42,074 bases of DNA from Acidobacterium sp. (GTDB lineage: Bacteria > Acidobacteriota > Terriglobia > Terriglobales > Acidobacteriaceae). Made by a program: the position numbers and the translations under genes. The notes under the pieces were generated by a model. The model saw only the letters and a list, made by a program, of their open reading frames with translations, did not search any database and was not told the DNA's origin. The DNA is taken from contig PKVY01000081.1 in the NCBI GenBank assembly GCA_003131625.1, positions 134,172-176,245 of the forward strand. Direction: 5' to 3'. Numbering within the stretch: position 1 is the stretch's first letter; each line of letters starts with the position of its first letter. Of the stretch, positions 1,916 to 15,816 are shown one piece after another.

Positions 1916-3715
1916 CTATCTGCCCGAAGCGCGCGCCGCCCTGATCTTGTCGTTAAGCTGGCGGAGAGCACCTTCGGAAGCAGTTTTGACCTGCCTCACG
2001 AGCCGCTGGGTGAAGAGGTAAGTCTCCAAATCCGCGTCTGCTCCTGAGGTGCTCGACCTTGGTTTCAGGGCCTTCTCGTCGCCGTCGGGCTTTTCGGCCT
2101 CGGGCTTCGGGGAAGGTTCCTCCCTTCCGCCGCCGTCATCGGAGCCGATAAGCTCCTTGAGGGCCGCGGTGACATCGTTGTGGTGGGATTCCATCTTTTC
2201 CAAGATGGCTTTCAATTTCTCCTTATTCTTCGCGGAGATCTGCCGGCCGATCTTCGTGATGAGCTCCTGCACGGATTTCTCTTCGTTGTCCTCGCCTTGA
2301 CCGAACTCCGCGTCGCACATGGCCTTGTGGGCTTTCTCATGGCGGTCGAGCTCGTCGCCCACCGCTTTCGTGAACTCGTCGATAGCCTTCTGCTTGTCGT
2401 CGTCTCCAGTAGCGGACTCATGGGCGGACTTGAACTCATCGATGGCCTTATCGACGGCTTTGACGTGCTTCAGATGCTCCGCTTTGACCTCCGACTTGAA
2501 TTCGTCGATGGATTTCTTCGGCTGCTGGTCTTCGAGCGCATAGCCATCGTCGATGGCCTTCATCGTGTTTTGGAGGTGCTCGTCCTGCTCTCCGTCGATA
2601 GCCTTCGTGAACTCGTCGATCGATTTGAACTCGTCGATAGCCTTCGCAAAGGCCTTTCCGTGCCGTTCGTGCTCTGCTTTGAATTTGTTTGTGAGTTCTT
2701 GGTTCATTGGTTCGGATTTGGTGGATTTCGCGGGGACACATACGAGGCTGCCGGGGTTGTTGGGATCGTCTGCGAGTATTCCGGGCGTCCCGTCGTCGAG
2801 CTCGCAGCGGTCGCCGATCTGAGGCGACTTTTCGGACTTCTCTTCCCAAGGCGGCGTTTTGCCGAATTCCTTGTAATGCGAGGCGATGTGAGCTTTCACG
2901 GCGGCAACGTCGCCGGAGGGAATGTCAACTCCCCCTCTGCCGCCTTGTAAGGCAGCCGCCGCTGCTTTCACTCCGTTCCAAACAGCTTTCAAATCGGAGG
3001 TGCGGTGATGGGGGAGCTTGTACGAGGACTTCACGTCGGGGTCTTCGGAATCGAACCACGCACAGATGGACTTGAGCTTGTCCATGTCGTCGCCGCACTC
3101 TTTCACCTCTGCCGGGCCGTCCCATGCGGTGTCCGGGTCGGCTGTGCCGTGGTCCTTGTAGGGAACCGCTCCCTTCGTCTCATAGAAAAAGCCCTTCGTC
3201 ACGAGATCACGTGTGGACATACCGAGCGCGCTCACCTGCCGTAACGATAGGGCGAACTTTCCCGCAGGGACGGGGCAGAAGCTCATCTCAAGGAGTTCGC
3301 GGGTGCCGTCGTCGTTCTGGATGTATCCGGGAGAGACGGCGCGGAGGATCTTCTGCTGATACAGCGAACATGCGAGGTCGGCTTCGGGATTGATGCCTGC
3401 CGGCGCGAACTTGCCCGTGGCGACCGCCTTGTTGCCTTGTATCTCGATGTCAGTGACAATCCCGATCGGGAAACCCCCGTAGTTGTGCGCCCAGAGGACG
3501 ACCGGGTTCAGCGTGAAGTATTTGAGGTCCCATTTGGACTGGTCGAGCTCATCGCCCTGACGGTCTTCGTCGGACGTGCTCATCACAACCTCGAAGGTGC
3601 GGTCGTCGCCGGAGGCCTTGGTCTGCTTCACAAAATCCCCGACGGACTCGGCCGCAAAGGATGCCTTCAGTTGAAGTGCGAGGTCCTGCGAGAATTTCTT
3701 TAGGGATTCATTCAC
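1916..3715 (-). CDS. Prohead protease fused to scaffold-like coiled coil
   Basis: Residues 38-165 resemble the HK97 prohead maturation protease (family U35/S78): FEVVMSTSDEDRQGD, then the likely catalytic His77 in LWAHNY and Ser128 in RAVSPGY. Residues about 165-300 contain a DIPSGD...HIASHYKEF...PPWE segment that I associate with long phage proteases. Residues about 335-470 are a Lys/Glu-rich coiled coil with IDEF repeats, and the tail (520-599) is Pro/Lys/Glu-rich then helical. At 599 residues it is far longer than a lone protease (about 180-250), so the scaffold is probably fused, with the enzyme cleaving its own scaffold during capsid maturation. It starts with GTG. The capsid gene follows 22 bp later. 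Confidence 0.85.
   Translation of the reverse strand: MNESLKKFSQDLALQLKASFAAESVGDFVKQTKASGDDRTFEVVMSTSDEDRQGDELDQSKWDLKYFTLNPVVLWAHNYGGFPIGIVTDIEIQGNKAVATGKFAPAGINPEADLACSLYQQKILRAVSPGYIQNDDGTRELLEMSFCPVPAGKFALSLRQVSALGMSTRDLVTKGFFYETKGAVPYKDHGTADPDTAWDGPAEVKECGDDMDKLKSICAWFDSEDPDVKSSYKLPHHRTSDLKAVWNGVKAAAAALQGGRGGVDIPSGDVAAVKAHIASHYKEFGKTPPWEEKSEKSPQIGDRCELDDGTPGILADDPNNPGSLVCVPAKSTKSEPMNQELTNKFKAEHERHGKAFAKAIDEFKSIDEFTKAIDGEQDEHLQNTMKAIDDGYALEDQQPKKSIDEFKSEVKAEHLKHVKAVDKAIDEFKSAHESATGDDDKQKAIDEFTKAVGDELDRHEKAHKAMCDAEFGQGEDNEEKSVQELITKIGRQISAKNKEKLKAILEKMESHHNDVTAALKELIGSDDGGGREEPSPKPEAEKPDGDEKALKPRSSTSGADADLETYLFTQRLVRQVKTASEGALRQLNDKIRAARASGR
2400..2660 (-). repeat. Degenerate in-frame IDEF repeat in scaffold region
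   Basis: The codons for (A/S)IDEF(K/T) recur about seven times over 260 bp, giving blocks such as FKSIDEFTKAID, KKSIDEFKSEV, DKAIDEFKSAH and QKAIDEFTKAV. Spacing is irregular (about 10-35 residues), so this is a diverged tandem duplication within the coiled coil rather than a perfect repeat. Confidence 0.7.
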
Positions 3716-3733
3716 CGTATAGGTGATTAGTGT

Positions 3734-4288
3734 TTAGTAAGGAAGCTCGTCGAACGAAAGGCGGAACACCGTGCTGGTCGGTACTGCGAGCGATGCGCCC
3801 GTGCCATTGCTGTAGTACACCGTCGCCGTACCCGTCGCGCCGTTCGTCGAAGCGAGTATGCAGCCCGAAACGTAGACCGTGGTCGTCGCGGAGCTGCCGC
3901 TGCAGATCGCGCCGACTGCGAGGCCGGCCGATTCCGGGACAGTGACAGTCGTCGTTGCCGTCGAGGTCGTCGCGCCGAGGGGTCCGAGCGTGGCCACTAC
4001 GGCCGGTGTTCCGCTCGCGGTCACATACGCCGTGAGGCCATGGTACTGGTCCGAACCGCCTACCGAGAGGCCGCTCGCCGCGTCGGATGAGAACGCTCCG
4101 ACCGGATAGACATACCCGTTGCCGGTCAGCCCTCCGGATGTGGTCGCGGTGACGAGGTTCGACGGAGCGATCCCTCCTGCGAAGTCACCGCCAAGCACCG
4201 GAGTTAATTTATCTGCTGCATACCCCCCGACAAGCCCGCCCACGATCGCAAGGACCGCGAGCCCCGCAATTAAGGATTTGTTGTTCAT
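3734..4288 (-). CDS. Exported or membrane-anchored Ser/Thr/Gly-rich protein
   Basis: This 184-residue protein starts MNNKSLIAGLAVLAIVGGLVGGY, a short basic N-end and one hydrophobic helix (residues 5-24), consistent with a signal anchor or signal peptide. The remainder is Ser/Thr/Gly/Ala/Val-rich and beta-like, with two Cys (in GAICSGSS and VSGCIL). It sits between virion genes, 18 bp upstream of the protease gene. I do not recognise a family. It is one of four consecutive-region genes with an export signal, which is odd for a virion module and suggests surface display or envelope passage during infection. Confidence 0.65.
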   Translation of the reverse strand: MNNKSLIAGLAVLAIVGGLVGGYAADKLTPVLGGDFAGGIAPSNLVTATTSGGLTGNGYVYPVGAFSSDAASGLSVGGSDQYHGLTAYVTASGTPAVVATLGPLGATTSTATTTVTVPESAGLAVGAICSGSSATTTVYVSGCILASTNGATGTATVYYSNGTGASLAVPTSTVFRLSFDELPY

Positions 4289-13166: not shown

Positions 13167-13373
13167 TTACTTCGCCTCCTTCTTCTGCTTCGCCCATCTC
13201 TTGCGCTGGGCTGCGGCGATCTTCTCACGTGCTTCGGCACTCAGAGTGTACTTCCGCTTCGCTTTACGGCCACCGCGGCTTGCGCCACTGCTGGTTCCGG
13301 TGAGTAGAGCGCGGGCCTGTTCGAGGCGGGAAATCTCAGCTTCGATTTGGGAAAGTATTTCAGTGGTATTCAT
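13167..13373 (-). CDS. Small basic DNA-binding-like protein
   Basis: The product has 68 residues from ATG at 13373 (MNTTEILSQIEAEISRLEQAR). An N-terminal coiled coil is followed by a Gly/Arg/Lys linker (SRGGRKAKRK) and a C-terminal helix LSAEAREKIAAAQRKRWAKQKK. This last motif (SAEARxKIAAAQRxRWAK) is a frequent small-protein pattern in soil bacteria, including acidobacteria, and looks DNA-binding. A longer upstream start (13472) overlaps the terminase C-terminus and is less likely. Compare the similar coil plus AT-hook protein ending at 25911. Confidence 0.68.
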   Translation of the reverse strand: MNTTEILSQIEAEISRLEQARALLTGTSSGASRGGRKAKRKYTLSAEAREKIAAAQRKRWAKQKKEAK

Positions 13374-13395
13374 GCGCAACAGTGTAGCGCAGTGG

Positions 13396-15816
13396 CTACG
13401 CATCGATCCAATGGATCTTCGGCAGCTCAAGCCCCTGACTGACGAGTCCTTGCAGCAAATAGACAAGGCCATCGCAGTTGTGAACGAGAATGCCGTTCGC
13501 TAAGAATTCGTGTGCGCCTTCAACGAGGAGGTTGTAGACGGGCCTTACGGACGAATCCTTGCGGATGTTCGCGGTGCCACTTCCGGCCGGATTCGCTTTT
13601 GTGCCACGCTGCAGCGGCGGGAATGACGTTGTAAAGCATGTTGCGTCGAGCTTCCCTGATCTGTTGCGGTGTGCGCCGGCGCATATGGTCGGAGATATGC
13701 TTCGCGCCATCTTTTGAGGCGAGATTAGAGATGCGGTTGTTGAGCGGGTTGCCGTCTTTGTGATGGACATGGGTGAATCGATCGATTGGCCCGAAGTTGT
13801 CGATCCAAAGCTGACGGTGGAGAGAGACGGGAGATTTGTGATTGCCGTCATGCCGCCAGTAGTAAACGCGATGAGCGCGTTGTTCGGCTTCAGGATTGCG
13901 GCGGTAGACCTTGCCATCGTAAAGAATGGCAGGCGGCGGATTCGCCCAATCAACCGATTCGTACCGGACAGCATCGCCTTTCCAGCGCCAATGATTCTCG
14001 CCTGAACGGGCAGCCGAAAATCGGGCACGCATTTCGGGACTCCACTTGTGTCCCTTATACCGGTCGCCGAGATTGCGGACAGAGACCTTACCAGCGCATT
14101 CGCGAGAACAAAACCTGCCGGTGCGCTCGCAGGCGTAGTATCGGAACTCTCTTCCGCATACTTCACACTTCCCGCTTCTATTGCCGAGATGCAGTCCTCC
14201 TTTCTGTTCCATACATAAATCATGTCGGATTCACGCACATTTGCAATGGGGACAACTCCGTGCGCCGTAATGACGGGATGATCGGGCGTGGCGGTCAATC
14301 CGAACCTTGTAATCACTTCTCGCCGTCCGGTTTGACCAGCCCAAAGCACGCGCTTATATCCCTGACGGGTGAAAACTCGGTCGCCTTCGCACACGGCTTT
14401 TATTGGGACTTCACCTCGTTCGGTGAAAACTAACGTGTCGCCATCGAGACATAGGTCGTCGTGTGACTCGACGCCAAGATTGAACATCTGCCCGAGCAGT
14501 TCCTCACATCCCGCCCGAGGGAATAGCACCGTGCCGTTCTTGATGTAGGGCGCTACCACTTGAAGCCTTGCCCGCTTGTCGCCCTGCGGCTTCATCGGAA
14601 CAACGGGCAAAAGCGCGCGCTCCATCTCCTGAATCGCGGCCTTTTGATACGCCACATCCTCCACGAAGAACAGGTTCGCGCCGCCGAGTTCGCCGGGAAT
14701 GTTCCTCACCTTCTGGAGGAAATTGAAGAACGTGACGTGCTCGTTGTACGGATGGGGCCGGATATAGATCTTCGGCGCGTTTTCGACGTAGAACACTTCG
14801 CCGGACACGATCGCCGTGTAATCCGCGCCTTCCTTCTGGCTGATCGCGAGGTCTATCCCGTGACCCTTGATCGCCGCGATGCCCTTCGGGAACTCGTCGT
14901 AGTAGTGAATGTCCTCGGGCTTTATGATCGCCTCGTCGTCCGAAACGATCTTCAGGAGCATTTCCCGCTGCCACGGGATCGCGCCCATATCCCGTTCCTT
15001 GTCCTTGAGGCTTTGCTCCGTGGGATACATCGCGGGCCATGTGCAAATGCCGTCCTTGTCGAGGAGCGGGAATTCGAGGACCTTGAATCCCGTGCCCGGC
15101 GCCCGGAGACGCGAAAGCAACGCGTCCATATGCAGGAGGTTCCCGATAACGACGAGCTTGCCCTTCCGGGCGTCCAAGCCCGGCATGATCTCGCTGTGGA
15201 GCCAGCGGTCGGTCTTGTCGCGGTTCTCCTTCGTGCGTACCCATTCGCCGTCCTCCGGGTCGTCCACGACGATGAGCTTCGGGCGGTATTGCAGATGGCG
15301 TAGACCTCTCACCTTCTGGCCGCGGGACCGGGCGAGGATTCGGACCCCGTTCGAAAGGACGATGTTCTGCTTCTGCCACTCCTCGCCTTCGCCCTGAAGG
15401 CTGAAGTCCTCGATGACGTTCCCTTTGATCTCGCCGTAGTCCTGCTTGATGAGGGTGTTCGTCTCGAGCTCGTGTTTGATGGCTGAAATGTTGAGGGTCG
15501 CCTGACGAGAGGAGTCGGCGATCAGGATGATGAAGGGATATTTCTCGGGATATTCGAGCGCGGCCCAGAGAGGGAGGGCCAAGCTGCCTAGCGTGCTCTT
15601 GCCTGAGCCGCGGAACCCGAGGACAAGGACGCGGCGCTCATGTTCGTCCTCAAGCGTGTGGACAAGCTGTGAGTGGAATGTGGCGGGAGGGTCGGTGAAG
15701 TATCCGGTGAGGTATATCAGCGAGAAGCCGAGCAGGTGTTTCCTGCTCTCTTTGCGGGCCTCGAAGTTGTCGAAAGGGTAATCAGCCGGGCTGGCTGGCG
15801 TTGCTGGGTTGGACAT
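13396..15816 (-). CDS. terL: Terminase large subunit interrupted by an intein
   Basis: The exteins (residues 1-455 and 781-806; 481 in total) form a normal-size packaging ATPase/nuclease. Walker A is GFRGSGKST (67-75), Walker B KLIVVDDPEDGEW (near 180), and a motif-III-like segment follows at VIGNLLHMDA. The nuclease domain contains GIDLAISQKEGADYTA (first Asp) and, after splicing, SHDDL joined to CDGLVYLLQG, restoring the conserved HDD...D pattern. The precursor is 806 residues. It overlaps the small-terminase gene by 35 bp. Without splicing the final nuclease Asp is displaced, so packaging depends on the intein being removed. Confidence 0.9.
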   Translation of the reverse strand: MSNPATPASPADYPFDNFEARKESRKHLLGFSLIYLTGYFTDPPATFHSQLVHTLEDEHERRVLVLGFRGSGKSTLGSLALPLWAALEYPEKYPFIILIADSSRQATLNISAIKHELETNTLIKQDYGEIKGNVIEDFSLQGEGEEWQKQNIVLSNGVRILARSRGQKVRGLRHLQYRPKLIVVDDPEDGEWVRTKENRDKTDRWLHSEIMPGLDARKGKLVVIGNLLHMDALLSRLRAPGTGFKVLEFPLLDKDGICTWPAMYPTEQSLKDKERDMGAIPWQREMLLKIVSDDEAIIKPEDIHYYDEFPKGIAAIKGHGIDLAISQKEGADYTAIVSGEVFYVENAPKIYIRPHPYNEHVTFFNFLQKVRNIPGELGGANLFFVEDVAYQKAAIQEMERALLPVVPMKPQGDKRARLQVVAPYIKNGTVLFPRAGCEELLGQMFNLGVESHDDLCLDGDTLVFTERGEVPIKAVCEGDRVFTRQGYKRVLWAGQTGRREVITRFGLTATPDHPVITAHGVVPIANVRESDMIYVWNRKEDCISAIEAGSVKYAEESSDTTPASAPAGFVLANALVRSLSAISATGIRDTSGVPKCVPDFRLPVQARIIGAGKAMLSGTNRLIGRIRRLPFFTMARSTAAILKPNNALIAFTTGGMTAITNLPSLSTVSFGSTTSGQSIDSPMSITKTATRSTTASLISPQKMARSISPTICAGAHRNRSGKLDATCFTTSFPPLQRGTKANPAGSGTANIRKDSSVRPVYNLLVEGAHEFLANGILVHNCDGLVYLLQGLVSQGLELPKIHWIDA
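13477..14451 (-). other. Intein in terminase nuclease motif
   Basis: The intein covers precursor residues 456-780 (325 aa). Cys1 opens block A (CLDGDTLVF), block B is GLTATPDHPVIT with the TxxH pattern, and the C-end has block F/G VYNLLVEGAHEFLANG...ILVHN, followed by Cys+1 of the C-extein. All residues for standard class 1 splicing (Cys1, block B Thr and His, penultimate His, Asn, Cys+1) are present. About 190 residues between the halves read as Ser/Thr/Ala/Arg-rich sequence with no endonuclease motif in this frame; the same DNA encodes an HNH protein in another frame. Confidence 0.88.
13520..14212 (-). CDS. HNH homing endonuclease overprinted in the intein
   Basis: This 230-codon ORF starts with ATG at 14212 and ends at 13520, wholly inside the intein and in the minus-1 frame relative to it. 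It has a Cys4 finger (CEVC at 16-19, then C28, C35, C39), a NUMOD3-like DNA-binding segment (about 53-80, GHKWSPEMRARFSAARSG) and an HNH core (H150, H151 in HVHHKDGNPLNN, then RISNLAS). It would nick or cut an intein-less terminase gene to drive homing. An in-frame stop lies 21 bp upstream of its ATG, so it does not extend. No good Shine-Dalgarno sequence precedes it. Paired sequencing indels are the main alternative to true overlap. Confidence 0.8.
   Translation of the reverse strand: MEQKGGLHLGNRSGKCEVCGREFRYYACERTGRFCSRECAGKVSVRNLGDRYKGHKWSPEMRARFSAARSGENHWRWKGDAVRYESVDWANPPPAILYDGKVYRRNPEAEQRAHRVYYWRHDGNHKSPVSLHRQLWIDNFGPIDRFTHVHHKDGNPLNNRISNLASKDGAKHISDHMRRRTPQQIREARRNMLYNVIPAAAAWHKSESGRKWHREHPQGFVRKARLQPPR

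What the first reader, a model, noticed from the sequence alone, without database searches (positions are those of the whole stretch)
13477..14451. Intein with its homing endonuclease overprinted in another reading frame
The intein has intact terminal splicing motifs in the terminase frame, but its middle carries an HNH endonuclease (NUMOD3-like plus HHKDGNPLNN) in the minus-1 frame, with its own ATG and stop (14212-13520). About 690 bp are open in both frames. Known inteins carry the endonuclease in frame; a nested alternative-frame endonuclease would uncouple splicing from homing. I cannot say whether this arrangement is already described. A rough count suggests the intein frame staying open by chance has a probability of a few percent, so selection is likely but not certain. 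Two compensating indels in the assembly are the rival explanation.
Basis: partly seen in the sequence, partly recalled or inferred. Interest (0 to 1): 0.9.

Follow-up and report, generated by a model that had tools for sequence, protein, structure and literature searches.

The report
Intein hiding an endonuclease gene out-of-frame
A phage DNA-packaging gene carries what looks like a self-splicing protein insert whose middle stretch also encodes, in another reading frame, a complete DNA-cutting enzyme; the same arrangement recurs in many distant phages, so it is kept by selection rather than an accident, and it may show how 'split' inteins and free-standing homing genes arise.

Summary
Confirmed and general. 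The window's large terminase (TerL) ORF (15816-13396, minus) contains an intein (14451-13477). A 230-aa HNH endonuclease ORF (14212-13520) lies inside it in the -1 frame, with its own ATG and stop. The model shows a HINT fold interrupted by 195 disordered residues where the HNH is encoded. Against L007, substitutions follow the intein frame at the ends and the HNH frame in the middle.

Of 76 loci with this HNH family and both intein halves, 66 have the HNH in -1, 5 in +1, and 5 have a split intein; none is fused in frame. In 57 representatives the intein frame holds 0 stops against 145-346 expected; 11 intein-less relatives have 80 against 75-89. Twenty-three later loci repeat this. Assembly indels cannot explain it. 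A different HNH family is overprinted on a helicase intein too.

Closest in print: the out-of-frame HNH 'ShiLan domain', not an intein (PMC11855218). An unread 2025 preprint on 'non-canonical' actinophage inteins may overlap. Splicing, HNH production, cleavage and homing are inferred, not shown.

The parts
14452..15816 (-). TerL N-extein, ending ...VESHDDL
   Evidence: phrog_38 1.4e-65; empty-site relatives read ...VESHDDL|(N/V)D
13477..14451 (-). Intein, 325 aa, Cys1...His-Asn325, uninterrupted in the TerL frame
14158..14451 (-). Intein N-terminal splicing half (residues 1-98; Cys1, block B TPDH)
   Evidence: AlphaFold block means 90-97 over residues 1-90, 75 over 91-100; Hint_2; block names recalled
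13573..14157 (-). Intein residues 99-293: open but disordered stretch, pLDDT below 50 throughout; its coding capacity is used by the HNH frame
   Evidence: intein codon positions changed 8/72/10 against L007
13477..13572 (-). Intein C-terminal splicing half (residues 294-325, ...VYNLLVEGAHEFLANGILVHN)
13399..13476 (-). TerL C-extein, beginning Cys+1 (CDGLVYLLQG...); stop 13396-13398
13520..14212 (-). Nested HNH endonuclease gene, 230 aa, -1 frame relative to TerL
14210..14212 (-). HNH start codon ATG, overlapping the intein-frame Trp codon; no clear Shine-Dalgarno in this copy
13988..14053 (-). NUMOD3-like motif (HNH-frame residues 54-75)
   Evidence: E 0.0022, just below the Pfam cut-off
13718..13822 (-). 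HNH_3 motif (HNH-frame residues 131-165, containing HVHHKDGNPLNN)
   Evidence: E 5.9e-9; H150, H151, D153, N158, N159, H172, H176 invariant in 20 aligned homologues
13520..13522 (-). HNH stop codon TGA inside the intein C-terminal block (RLQPPR* out of frame to VYNLLVE)

Best explanation
It is a mobile intein whose homing endonuclease is overprinted instead of fused. The terL transcript is read in two ways. Reading straight through makes a TerL precursor whose two intein halves fold together as one HINT domain; the 195 residues between them are an unstructured loop that mainly has to contain no stop codon; the intein excises and mature TerL forms. Separately, ribosomes start at an internal ATG at the end of the N-terminal splicing half and make a free HNH nuclease (230 aa here), stopping inside the C-terminal splicing block. 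The nuclease cuts intein-less terL at its conserved motif (HDD/NDH...DALRY type), and repair copies in the intein, the overprinted gene and the +1 Cys. Shown here: anatomy of both frames, purifying selection on the HNH protein, selection against stops in the intein frame, predicted HINT fold, empty sites, recurrence. Inferred: splicing, internal initiation, cleavage of that site, homing.
For: Anatomy. AlphaFold: HINT halves mostly above 90 (110 of 325 residues), residues 99-293 below 50; best PDB match gp41-1 intein 6qaz. Window v L007: HNH aa identity 0.91, intein-frame 0.64; NN/SN 0.08 for HNH, NN/NS 0.69 for the intein frame; five independent pairs pooled 0.21 and 0.64. The frame under selection switches: intein codon positions 16/10/42 in the N block, 8/72/10 in the middle. 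76 loci with both halves (near-duplicate contigs included): 66 in -1, 5 in +1, 5 split, 0 fused in frame. Stops in the intein frame: 0 v 145-346 expected in 57 representatives; 11 intein-less 80 v 75-89; 5 split 55 v 63-66. Twenty-three later loci: 0 v 67-159. Met followed by K/N/T/I/M, a forced stop in the intein frame: 0 of 90 Met in nested(-1) v 6 of 29 in intein-less proteins. SD-like motif before 23 of 66 HNH starts v 33 of 320 control ATGs, one-sided p 3e-6. Of 45 TerL relatives 42 lack the insert; six read directly have N or V where the window has Cys+1. HNH-less mini-intein L149.
Against: No splicing, translation, cleavage or homing was observed. The window's HNH ATG has no clear Shine-Dalgarno; 43 of 66 representatives lack an SD-like motif, and hybridisation energy separates starts from controls only weakly (p 0.03). 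My script preferred ATG where several starts were possible, so '63 of 66 ATG' is partly by construction. The window alone fits chance under the shuffle null (0.30). NN/NS of 0.64-0.69 in the intein frame is below 1, so the loop may carry some constraint besides openness. 'Nested' was defined by an open ORF, so zero stops in that class is by definition; the unconditional figure is 71 of 76. In split L123, and in L113 (N half only), the N half has the HNH's frame modulo 3, but in a separate ORF closed before the HNH. Intein-less L009 also has 0 stops in that frame. The Foldseek match of the HNH model to I-HmuI is weak (E 0.045); the whole-intein model has mean pLDDT 54.8.
Confidence: 0.85

Rival explanations
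1. Assembly artefact: two compensating one-base errors moved a normally fused HNH out of frame.
For: Raw reads were not available.
Against: Same arrangement in L007 and L010, in phage records TJE1, Highwayman and MD07 and in 66 of 76 loci, window included; HNH has its own ATG, upstream in-frame stop and terminal stop; codon-position pattern fits real dual-frame evolution.
Confidence: 0.01
2. The intein frame is open by chance and means nothing; only the HNH matters.
For: Window alone has P 0.30 under its own-codon shuffle; intein-frame residues in the overlap drift (identity 0.61 over residues 99-293).
Against: 71 of 76 loci open; 0 stops in 57 representatives where 145-346 are expected; AT-rich cases such as L083 (GC 0.30) have 0 v 33 in the unused frame; repeated in 23 further loci.
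Confidence: 0.01
3. The HNH is reached by programmed ribosomal frameshifting, giving an N-intein-HNH fusion, not by internal initiation.
For: Many copies, the window included, lack an SD-like motif; a strong AAAGGAGGA lies just after the junction (14195-14203), and internal SDs can stimulate shifts (recalled).
Against: Each of the 76 loci has a possible start codon before the HNH domain, usually a few codons after an HNH-frame stop; SD-like motifs are enriched before the chosen starts; free-standing relatives L009, L042, L047 and L049 keep a start at the matching place.
Confidence: 0.1
4. The nested HNH is a packaging cofactor of the terminase (as reported for the HK97-type HNH protein) rather than a homing endonuclease.
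For: It sits in terL, and free-standing relatives lie beside terL in BP10, EauM23, L009 and L042; passage on the HK97 HNH protein in PMC10448857.
Against: Patchy: 42 of 45 TerL relatives lack the insert; it is found with the intein and its +1 Cys; it matches HNH_3/NUMOD3 and intron-type HNH PHROGs; a different HNH family does the same in a helicase intein.
Confidence: 0.08
5. A group I intron carrying the HNH is inserted inside the intein coding sequence.
For: HNH genes are common in phage introns (recalled).
Against: No intron family at E up to 10 in window 13200-14700, the only stretch searched; no reason for 0 stops in the intein frame; HNH start and stop overlap the intein splicing halves.
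Confidence: 0.01

Closest known systems
ShiLan domain (Arsenault, Gosselin, Gogarten 2025, PMC11855218; abstract, sections 3.6 and 4, part of the references, and passages read)
   Same: An HNH endonuclease encoded out of frame inside a phage gene, with no stops in the host frame; patchy distribution; translation start unexplained
   Different: Sits in a DNA methylase and is reported to lack splicing motifs, so not an intein and thought to stay in the protein; here both splicing halves are present and the host is TerL
[quoted passage not shown] not held)
   Same: Cited by PMC11855218 for overlapping reading frames in actinobacteriophages, so it may describe this arrangement
   Different: Cannot be judged; not read
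Canonical homing inteins, e.g. mycobacteriophage TerL inteins (PMC5050341, passages read)
   Same: Inteins in TerL, the commonest intein host among mycobacteriophages in that paper
   Different: Those TerL inteins all lie in the ATPase domain and are headed splicing-competent and endonuclease-active; here the site is a C-terminal motif (nuclease domain, recalled) and the endonuclease is in another frame
Fractured genes: split inteins with an endonuclease gene between the halves (Dassa 2009; reference title seen, not held; rest recalled)
   Same: Endonuclease encoded between the two splicing halves; a naturally split GOS-TerL intein is known (reference title in PMC7090010)
   Different: There the intein is in two genes; here it is one ORF. 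Five of 76 relatives here are split
HNH_3/NUMOD3 homing endonucleases, I-HmuI type
   Same: HNH_3 and NUMOD3 hits; I-HmuI is the best, weak, Foldseek match
   Different: I-HmuI is intron-encoded (recalled); this one overlaps an intein

Membership tests
Intein (HINT, class 1) | Nucleophile at residue 1, block B TxxH, terminal His-Asn, Cys/Ser/Thr at +1 | tested here: met
   CLDGD..., TPDH, LVHN|C; Hint_2 and TIGR01443 above cut-off, TIGR01445 and PF14890 below; motif rules recalled
Intein (HINT, class 1) | HINT fold | tested here: met
   (gp41-1, DnaX, RecA, DnaB inteins among the top matches; predicted model)
Intein (HINT, class 1) | Sits precisely between codons of a host gene that exists without it | tested here: met
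   six relatives without the insert (L008, L009, L011, L015, L035, L042) read VESHDDL|(N/V)D at the junction
Intein (HINT, class 1) | Self-splicing | not testable with these tools
   no experiment
Canonical homing intein | Endonuclease domain fused in frame between blocks B and F | tested here: not met
   offset 2 mod 3; 0 of 76 fused in frame
HNH homing endonuclease | HNH motif, under purifying selection | tested here: met
   PF13392 5.9e-9; invariants; NN/SN 0.08 to L007
HNH homing endonuclease | Site-specific cleavage and homing | not testable with these tools
   only indirect: patchy distribution, +1 Cys found with the intein
ShiLan-type insertion | Out-of-frame HNH with no splicing motif in the host frame | tested here: not met
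   splicing motifs are present
Fractured gene / split intein | Intein halves on separate ORFs | tested here: not met
   one 806-aa ORF; met in relatives L094, L098, L107, L116, L123
Overlapping (overprinted) genes | Two frames of one stretch both maintained by selection | tested here: met
   in the overlap the intein frame is kept mainly free of stops
Group I intron | Catalytic RNA core | tested here: not met
   window 13200-14700 only

The most novel reading that the evidence does not exclude
Overprinted-endonuclease inteins are a general, convergent and old class. An endonuclease gene invades the loop of a mini-intein in a non-fused frame, the intein keeps its frame by stop avoidance, and from this state the element can (a) lose the gene to give a mini-intein, (b) let the frame close, giving a split intein with an endonuclease gene in the middle, i.e. 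the origin of 'fractured genes', or (c) release the endonuclease as a free-standing gene beside terL that still carries intein and extein fossils. Each of these states was seen in relatives; the overprinted state occurs in one HNH family in both alternative frames and, with a different HNH family, in a helicase intein.
Probability: 0.45. Interest if true: 0.9.

Novelty: new variant of a known kind. Interest (0 to 1): 0.78.

Why it matters
Inteins are usually described as one protein with splicing and endonuclease domains together. Here the two functions share DNA but not protein, so the endonuclease can evolve, be dosed, be lost or leave without touching splicing, and the host gene is protected by little more than stop avoidance in a disordered loop. 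That offers a testable route to split inteins and to free-standing homing genes beside terL. It is easily missed: in TJE1, Highwayman and MD07 only TerL is annotated at the place. It is also a natural set of long same-strand overlapping genes with dozens of diverged copies.

Tried and rejected
Rejected: assembly indels, chance openness, group I intron (see rivals). The frameshift route is kept at low weight.

Led nowhere: intein-N alignment A3 was not conserved enough to search, and a single protein in its place found only its own contig. HNH alignment A1 could not be used on genome contigs; a smaller alignment, A8, was used. Foldseek of the HNH model gave only a weak I-HmuI match. Pfam found nothing in the two helicase-intein ORFs; PHROGs did for the one submitted, L157. 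The HNH tree (quick mode) has 46 of 93 inner branches open and 13 starred; starred forks are used, and two unstarred ones are quoted with their support.

Rows dropped before counts: L001-L006 (copies of the window or L007) and minus-strand hits; 2 of 93 records whose HNH ORF ran off the locus or held N (91 rows); 13 more at 70% identity or above (78 representatives). L137-L140, L143, L145, L147 and L151 re-find contigs already held. One search's 76 loci still include near-duplicates (e.g. L089-L091, L111/L121). One search's 23 and 11 loci were not filtered for similarity; L181 and L182 lie on one contig and give identical counts; six ORFs (L141, L162, L171, L169, L173, L184) were started at the domain, not at an ATG. 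'Intein-less' means that no intein half was found by my profiles, so very diverged halves could be missed.
Full report
WHAT IS THERE. The minus-strand ORF 15816-13396 (806 aa) is a large terminase (phrog_38, 1.4e-65) with an intein at 14451-13477. Its ends match Hint_2 and TIGR01443 above cut-off and TIGR01445 and PF14890 below it. A second ORF, 14212-13520, 230 aa, starts 1604 nt into the TerL gene, i.e. in the -1 frame, and is an HNH protein (PF13392 5.9e-9; NUMOD3 0.0022, just below its cut-off). The window lies in a 5.39 Mb, 148-contig genome at C67:134172-176245.

THE TWO READINGS. AlphaFold on the 325-aa intein (18 sequences) gives two confident pieces at the ends (110 residues at 90 or more) that together match solved HINT folds; residues 99-293 are below 50 (mean of the whole 54.8). 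Top PDB matches are gp41-1, DnaX, RecA and DnaB inteins. The HNH model has block means of 88-97 over residues 81-170 and 74-92 over 171-210, and is poor at the ends (mean 76.6). So splicing is encoded at the ends in one frame and the nuclease in the middle in the other. The HNH ATG overlaps an intein Trp codon, and its stop lies inside the C-terminal splicing block.

SELECTION. Against L007 (a distinct contig; 83% to the TerL ORF by best segment), the HNH frame is 91% identical and the intein frame over the same stretch 64%. Changes fall 13/9/77 on HNH codon positions; NN/SN is 0.08 for HNH and NN/NS 0.69 for the intein frame. Five independent pairs pooled (one of them with 4 changes only) give 0.21 and 0.64. 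By segment, intein codon positions change 16/10/42 in the non-overlapping N block and 8/72/10 in residues 99-293: the frame under selection switches inside one open ORF. HNH codons 1-60 show the same third-position bias (3/3/19), so the upstream ATG is probably the real start.

RECURRENCE. tblastn of the HNH against annotated phages found it inside annotated TerL genes of Tetrasphaera phage TJE1, Acinetobacter phage Highwayman and Rhodobacteraceae phage MD07, all three at offset 2 as in the window. An HNH-profile scan of viral contigs (80 of 306 relatives kept) plus earlier loci gave 93 HNH records after dropping copies. Of these, 76 had both intein halves: 66 in one open ORF with HNH at -1, 5 in one ORF at +1, 5 with the halves in different ORFs, 0 fused in frame; 14 had neither half and 3 only one. 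In split L123, and in L113 (N half only), the N half has the HNH's frame modulo 3 but is closed by a stop before the HNH. By eye, in the flanks printed for these 76 (L064 has none upstream; L123 and L125 have partial N hits), the insertion lies in or within a few residues of a TerL motif of the type HDD or NDH ... DALRY (nuclease domain, recalled). PHROGs named TerL for 8 of 8 nested, mini or split hosts submitted. A scan seeded on the intein N block, blind to HNH, gave 23 loci: 18 nested at -1 (7 of them contigs already held), 1 HNH-less mini-intein (L149), 1 in-frame HNH in a DNA polymerase (L156), 2 helicase inteins (L157, L158) and 1 other (L160). A scan of genome contigs (one genome for each of 84,980 species) gave 24 loci: 12 nested at -1, among them Bacteroides mediterraneensis Marseille-P2644T and MAGs labelled Nitrosotalea and Methanomethylophilaceae; 1 in-frame in a DNA polymerase (L177); 11 with no intein motif beside the HNH.

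STOP AVOIDANCE. In 57 nested(-1) representatives (below 70% identity, 11,870 codons) the intein frame has 0 stops; 145 are expected after shuffling each gene's own synonymous codons and 346 from local composition; the unused frame has 967. Eleven intein-less relatives have 80 stops in the same frame (75-89 expected; one of them, L009, has 0). Five split representatives have 55 (63-66 expected). Four nested(+1) representatives have 0 (40-54 expected). Nested loci were defined by an open ORF, so the unconditional statement is 71 of 76 open. Twenty-three later loci: 0 against 67 and 159, with 495 in the unused frame; eleven without intein: 88 against 96 and 114. In the -1 arrangement Met followed by K, N, T, I or M forces a stop: 0 of 90 Met in nested(-1) proteins, 6 of 29 in intein-less ones. 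The intein frame thus limits the HNH protein sequence as well. For the window alone the figures are 0.002 (composition) and 0.30 (shuffle), so the single case proves little.

TRANSLATION. Each of the 76 loci has a possible start before the HNH domain. With ATG preferred where there was a choice, 63 of 66 representatives start with ATG and 3 with GTG. An SD-like motif precedes 23 of 66 starts and 33 of 320 control ATGs from the same terL genes (one-sided p 3e-6); hybridisation energy differs only weakly (p 0.03). The window's ATG lacks one. Internal initiation is the best reading, not a demonstrated one.

MOBILITY. Of 45 loci found with the whole TerL, 3 hold the insert: L006 (0 nt differences to the window over TerL and 3 kb either side), L007 and L010. 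For 36 the match crosses the site without it, and for the other 6, whose match stops there, reading the DNA shows an uninterrupted site. Six relatives read at the junction have VESHDDL followed by N or V where the window has Cys+1: the splicing nucleophile is found with the intein.

STATES AROUND IT. L149 is a mini-intein that resembles L095 on both sides of where L095 carries the HNH. Five loci are split: HNH overlaps the end of the N half in L094, L098 and L116, not in L107 and L123; a possible start of the C half overlaps the end of HNH in L098, L107 and L116. Each is a single contig, L098 and L116 being alike. L009, L042, L047 and L049 have an intein-less terL with an HNH gene directly downstream. 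The DNA upstream of that gene still reads, in the old relative frame, like the end of the intein N half (VILYIW in L009 and L042, SDTIYMW in L047 and L049); in L042 the 3' end reads PVFNLRIE, like the C-terminal block. After the HNH, L047 and L049 have a second piece of TerL C-terminus (ALDALVYLILGLVGEG...), and L009 has one too (VSQGLELPKIHWIEA, read by eye from the DNA tail). These look like HNH genes left behind when an intein-less terL end was restored. In the HNH tree a starred clade joins four nested(+1), three split and one free-standing gene; L009, L042 and L047 are sister to the window group (support 92, not starred) inside a wider nested group (88, open). The tree is unrooted, so direction is inferred from the fossils.

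A SECOND FAMILY. Inteins in a DNA helicase (L157, L158; for L157 phrog_16, ResIII and DEAD) carry, in the +1 frame, an HNH ORF of another family (L157: phrog_374, 1e-28; none of its PHROGs is on the window HNH's list, and my HNH profiles did not find it): 0 stops against 16-20 expected, HNH-frame identity 0.94 against 0.75 in the intein frame, changes 12/6/49.

AGAINST WHAT IS KNOWN. Ten literature searches of open PMC papers turned up one account of out-of-frame HNH insertions, the ShiLan domain and the Pacc40 case (PMC11855218: abstract, sections 3.6 and 4, part of the references, and passages read), stated not to be inteins, and a genome note on Applejack (PMC12613952, passages). Among the listed titles and the passages I read I found no account of an out-of-frame endonuclease inside an intein with splicing motifs. 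The preprint cited there as reference 7 is not held and may describe it; I rate that risk near one half. Mycobacteriophage TerL inteins in PMC5050341 (passages) lie in the ATPase domain. PMC10448857 and PMC7090010 were seen in passages. The 'fractured gene' paper is known to me only as a reference title and from memory.

VERDICT. Observation confirmed, interpretation supported and extended: a recurrent, selected architecture, a new variant of homing intein. Splicing, HNH production, cleavage and homing still need experiments.

Noticed in passing
L157:1783-4401 with ORF 3074-3922; L158:1388-3835 with ORF 2559-3359: DNA-helicase inteins with an HNH ORF of a different family (phrog_374, scored for L157) in the +1 frame: a second, apparently independent case of overprinting.
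   Followed up: partly
L009:5502-6047, L042:5394-6053, L047:5481-6014, L049:1065-1610: Free-standing HNH genes directly downstream of intein-less terL, with intein-like fossils upstream (all four), a C-block fossil (L042) or a second piece of TerL C-terminus downstream (L009, L047, L049): they look like escapees from an intein.
   Followed up: partly
L094, L098, L107, L116, L123: Split forms: TerL-N-intein, HNH and C-intein on separate, partly overlapping ORFs at the TerL motif, a possible route from overprinted to fractured genes.
   Followed up: partly
L149:3010-3399: HNH-less mini-intein at the same TerL site, resembling L095/L114 with the overprinted stretch missing.
   Followed up: partly
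window 14195-14203 (minus): A strong Shine-Dalgarno-like AAAGGAGGA lies just inside the HNH gene, after its ATG, with no ATG/GTG/TTG in the HNH frame at the usual distance; its role is unclear.
   Followed up: no
L160:3004-3990: Terminase-like gene with an intein of another kind whose in-frame middle looks by eye like a LAGLIDADG endonuclease (motif and host recalled, not scored).
   Followed up: no
L156:3-4499 and L177:385-4035: Inteins in DNA polymerases with an HNH in the same frame: ordinary fused forms, useful as controls.
   Followed up: partly
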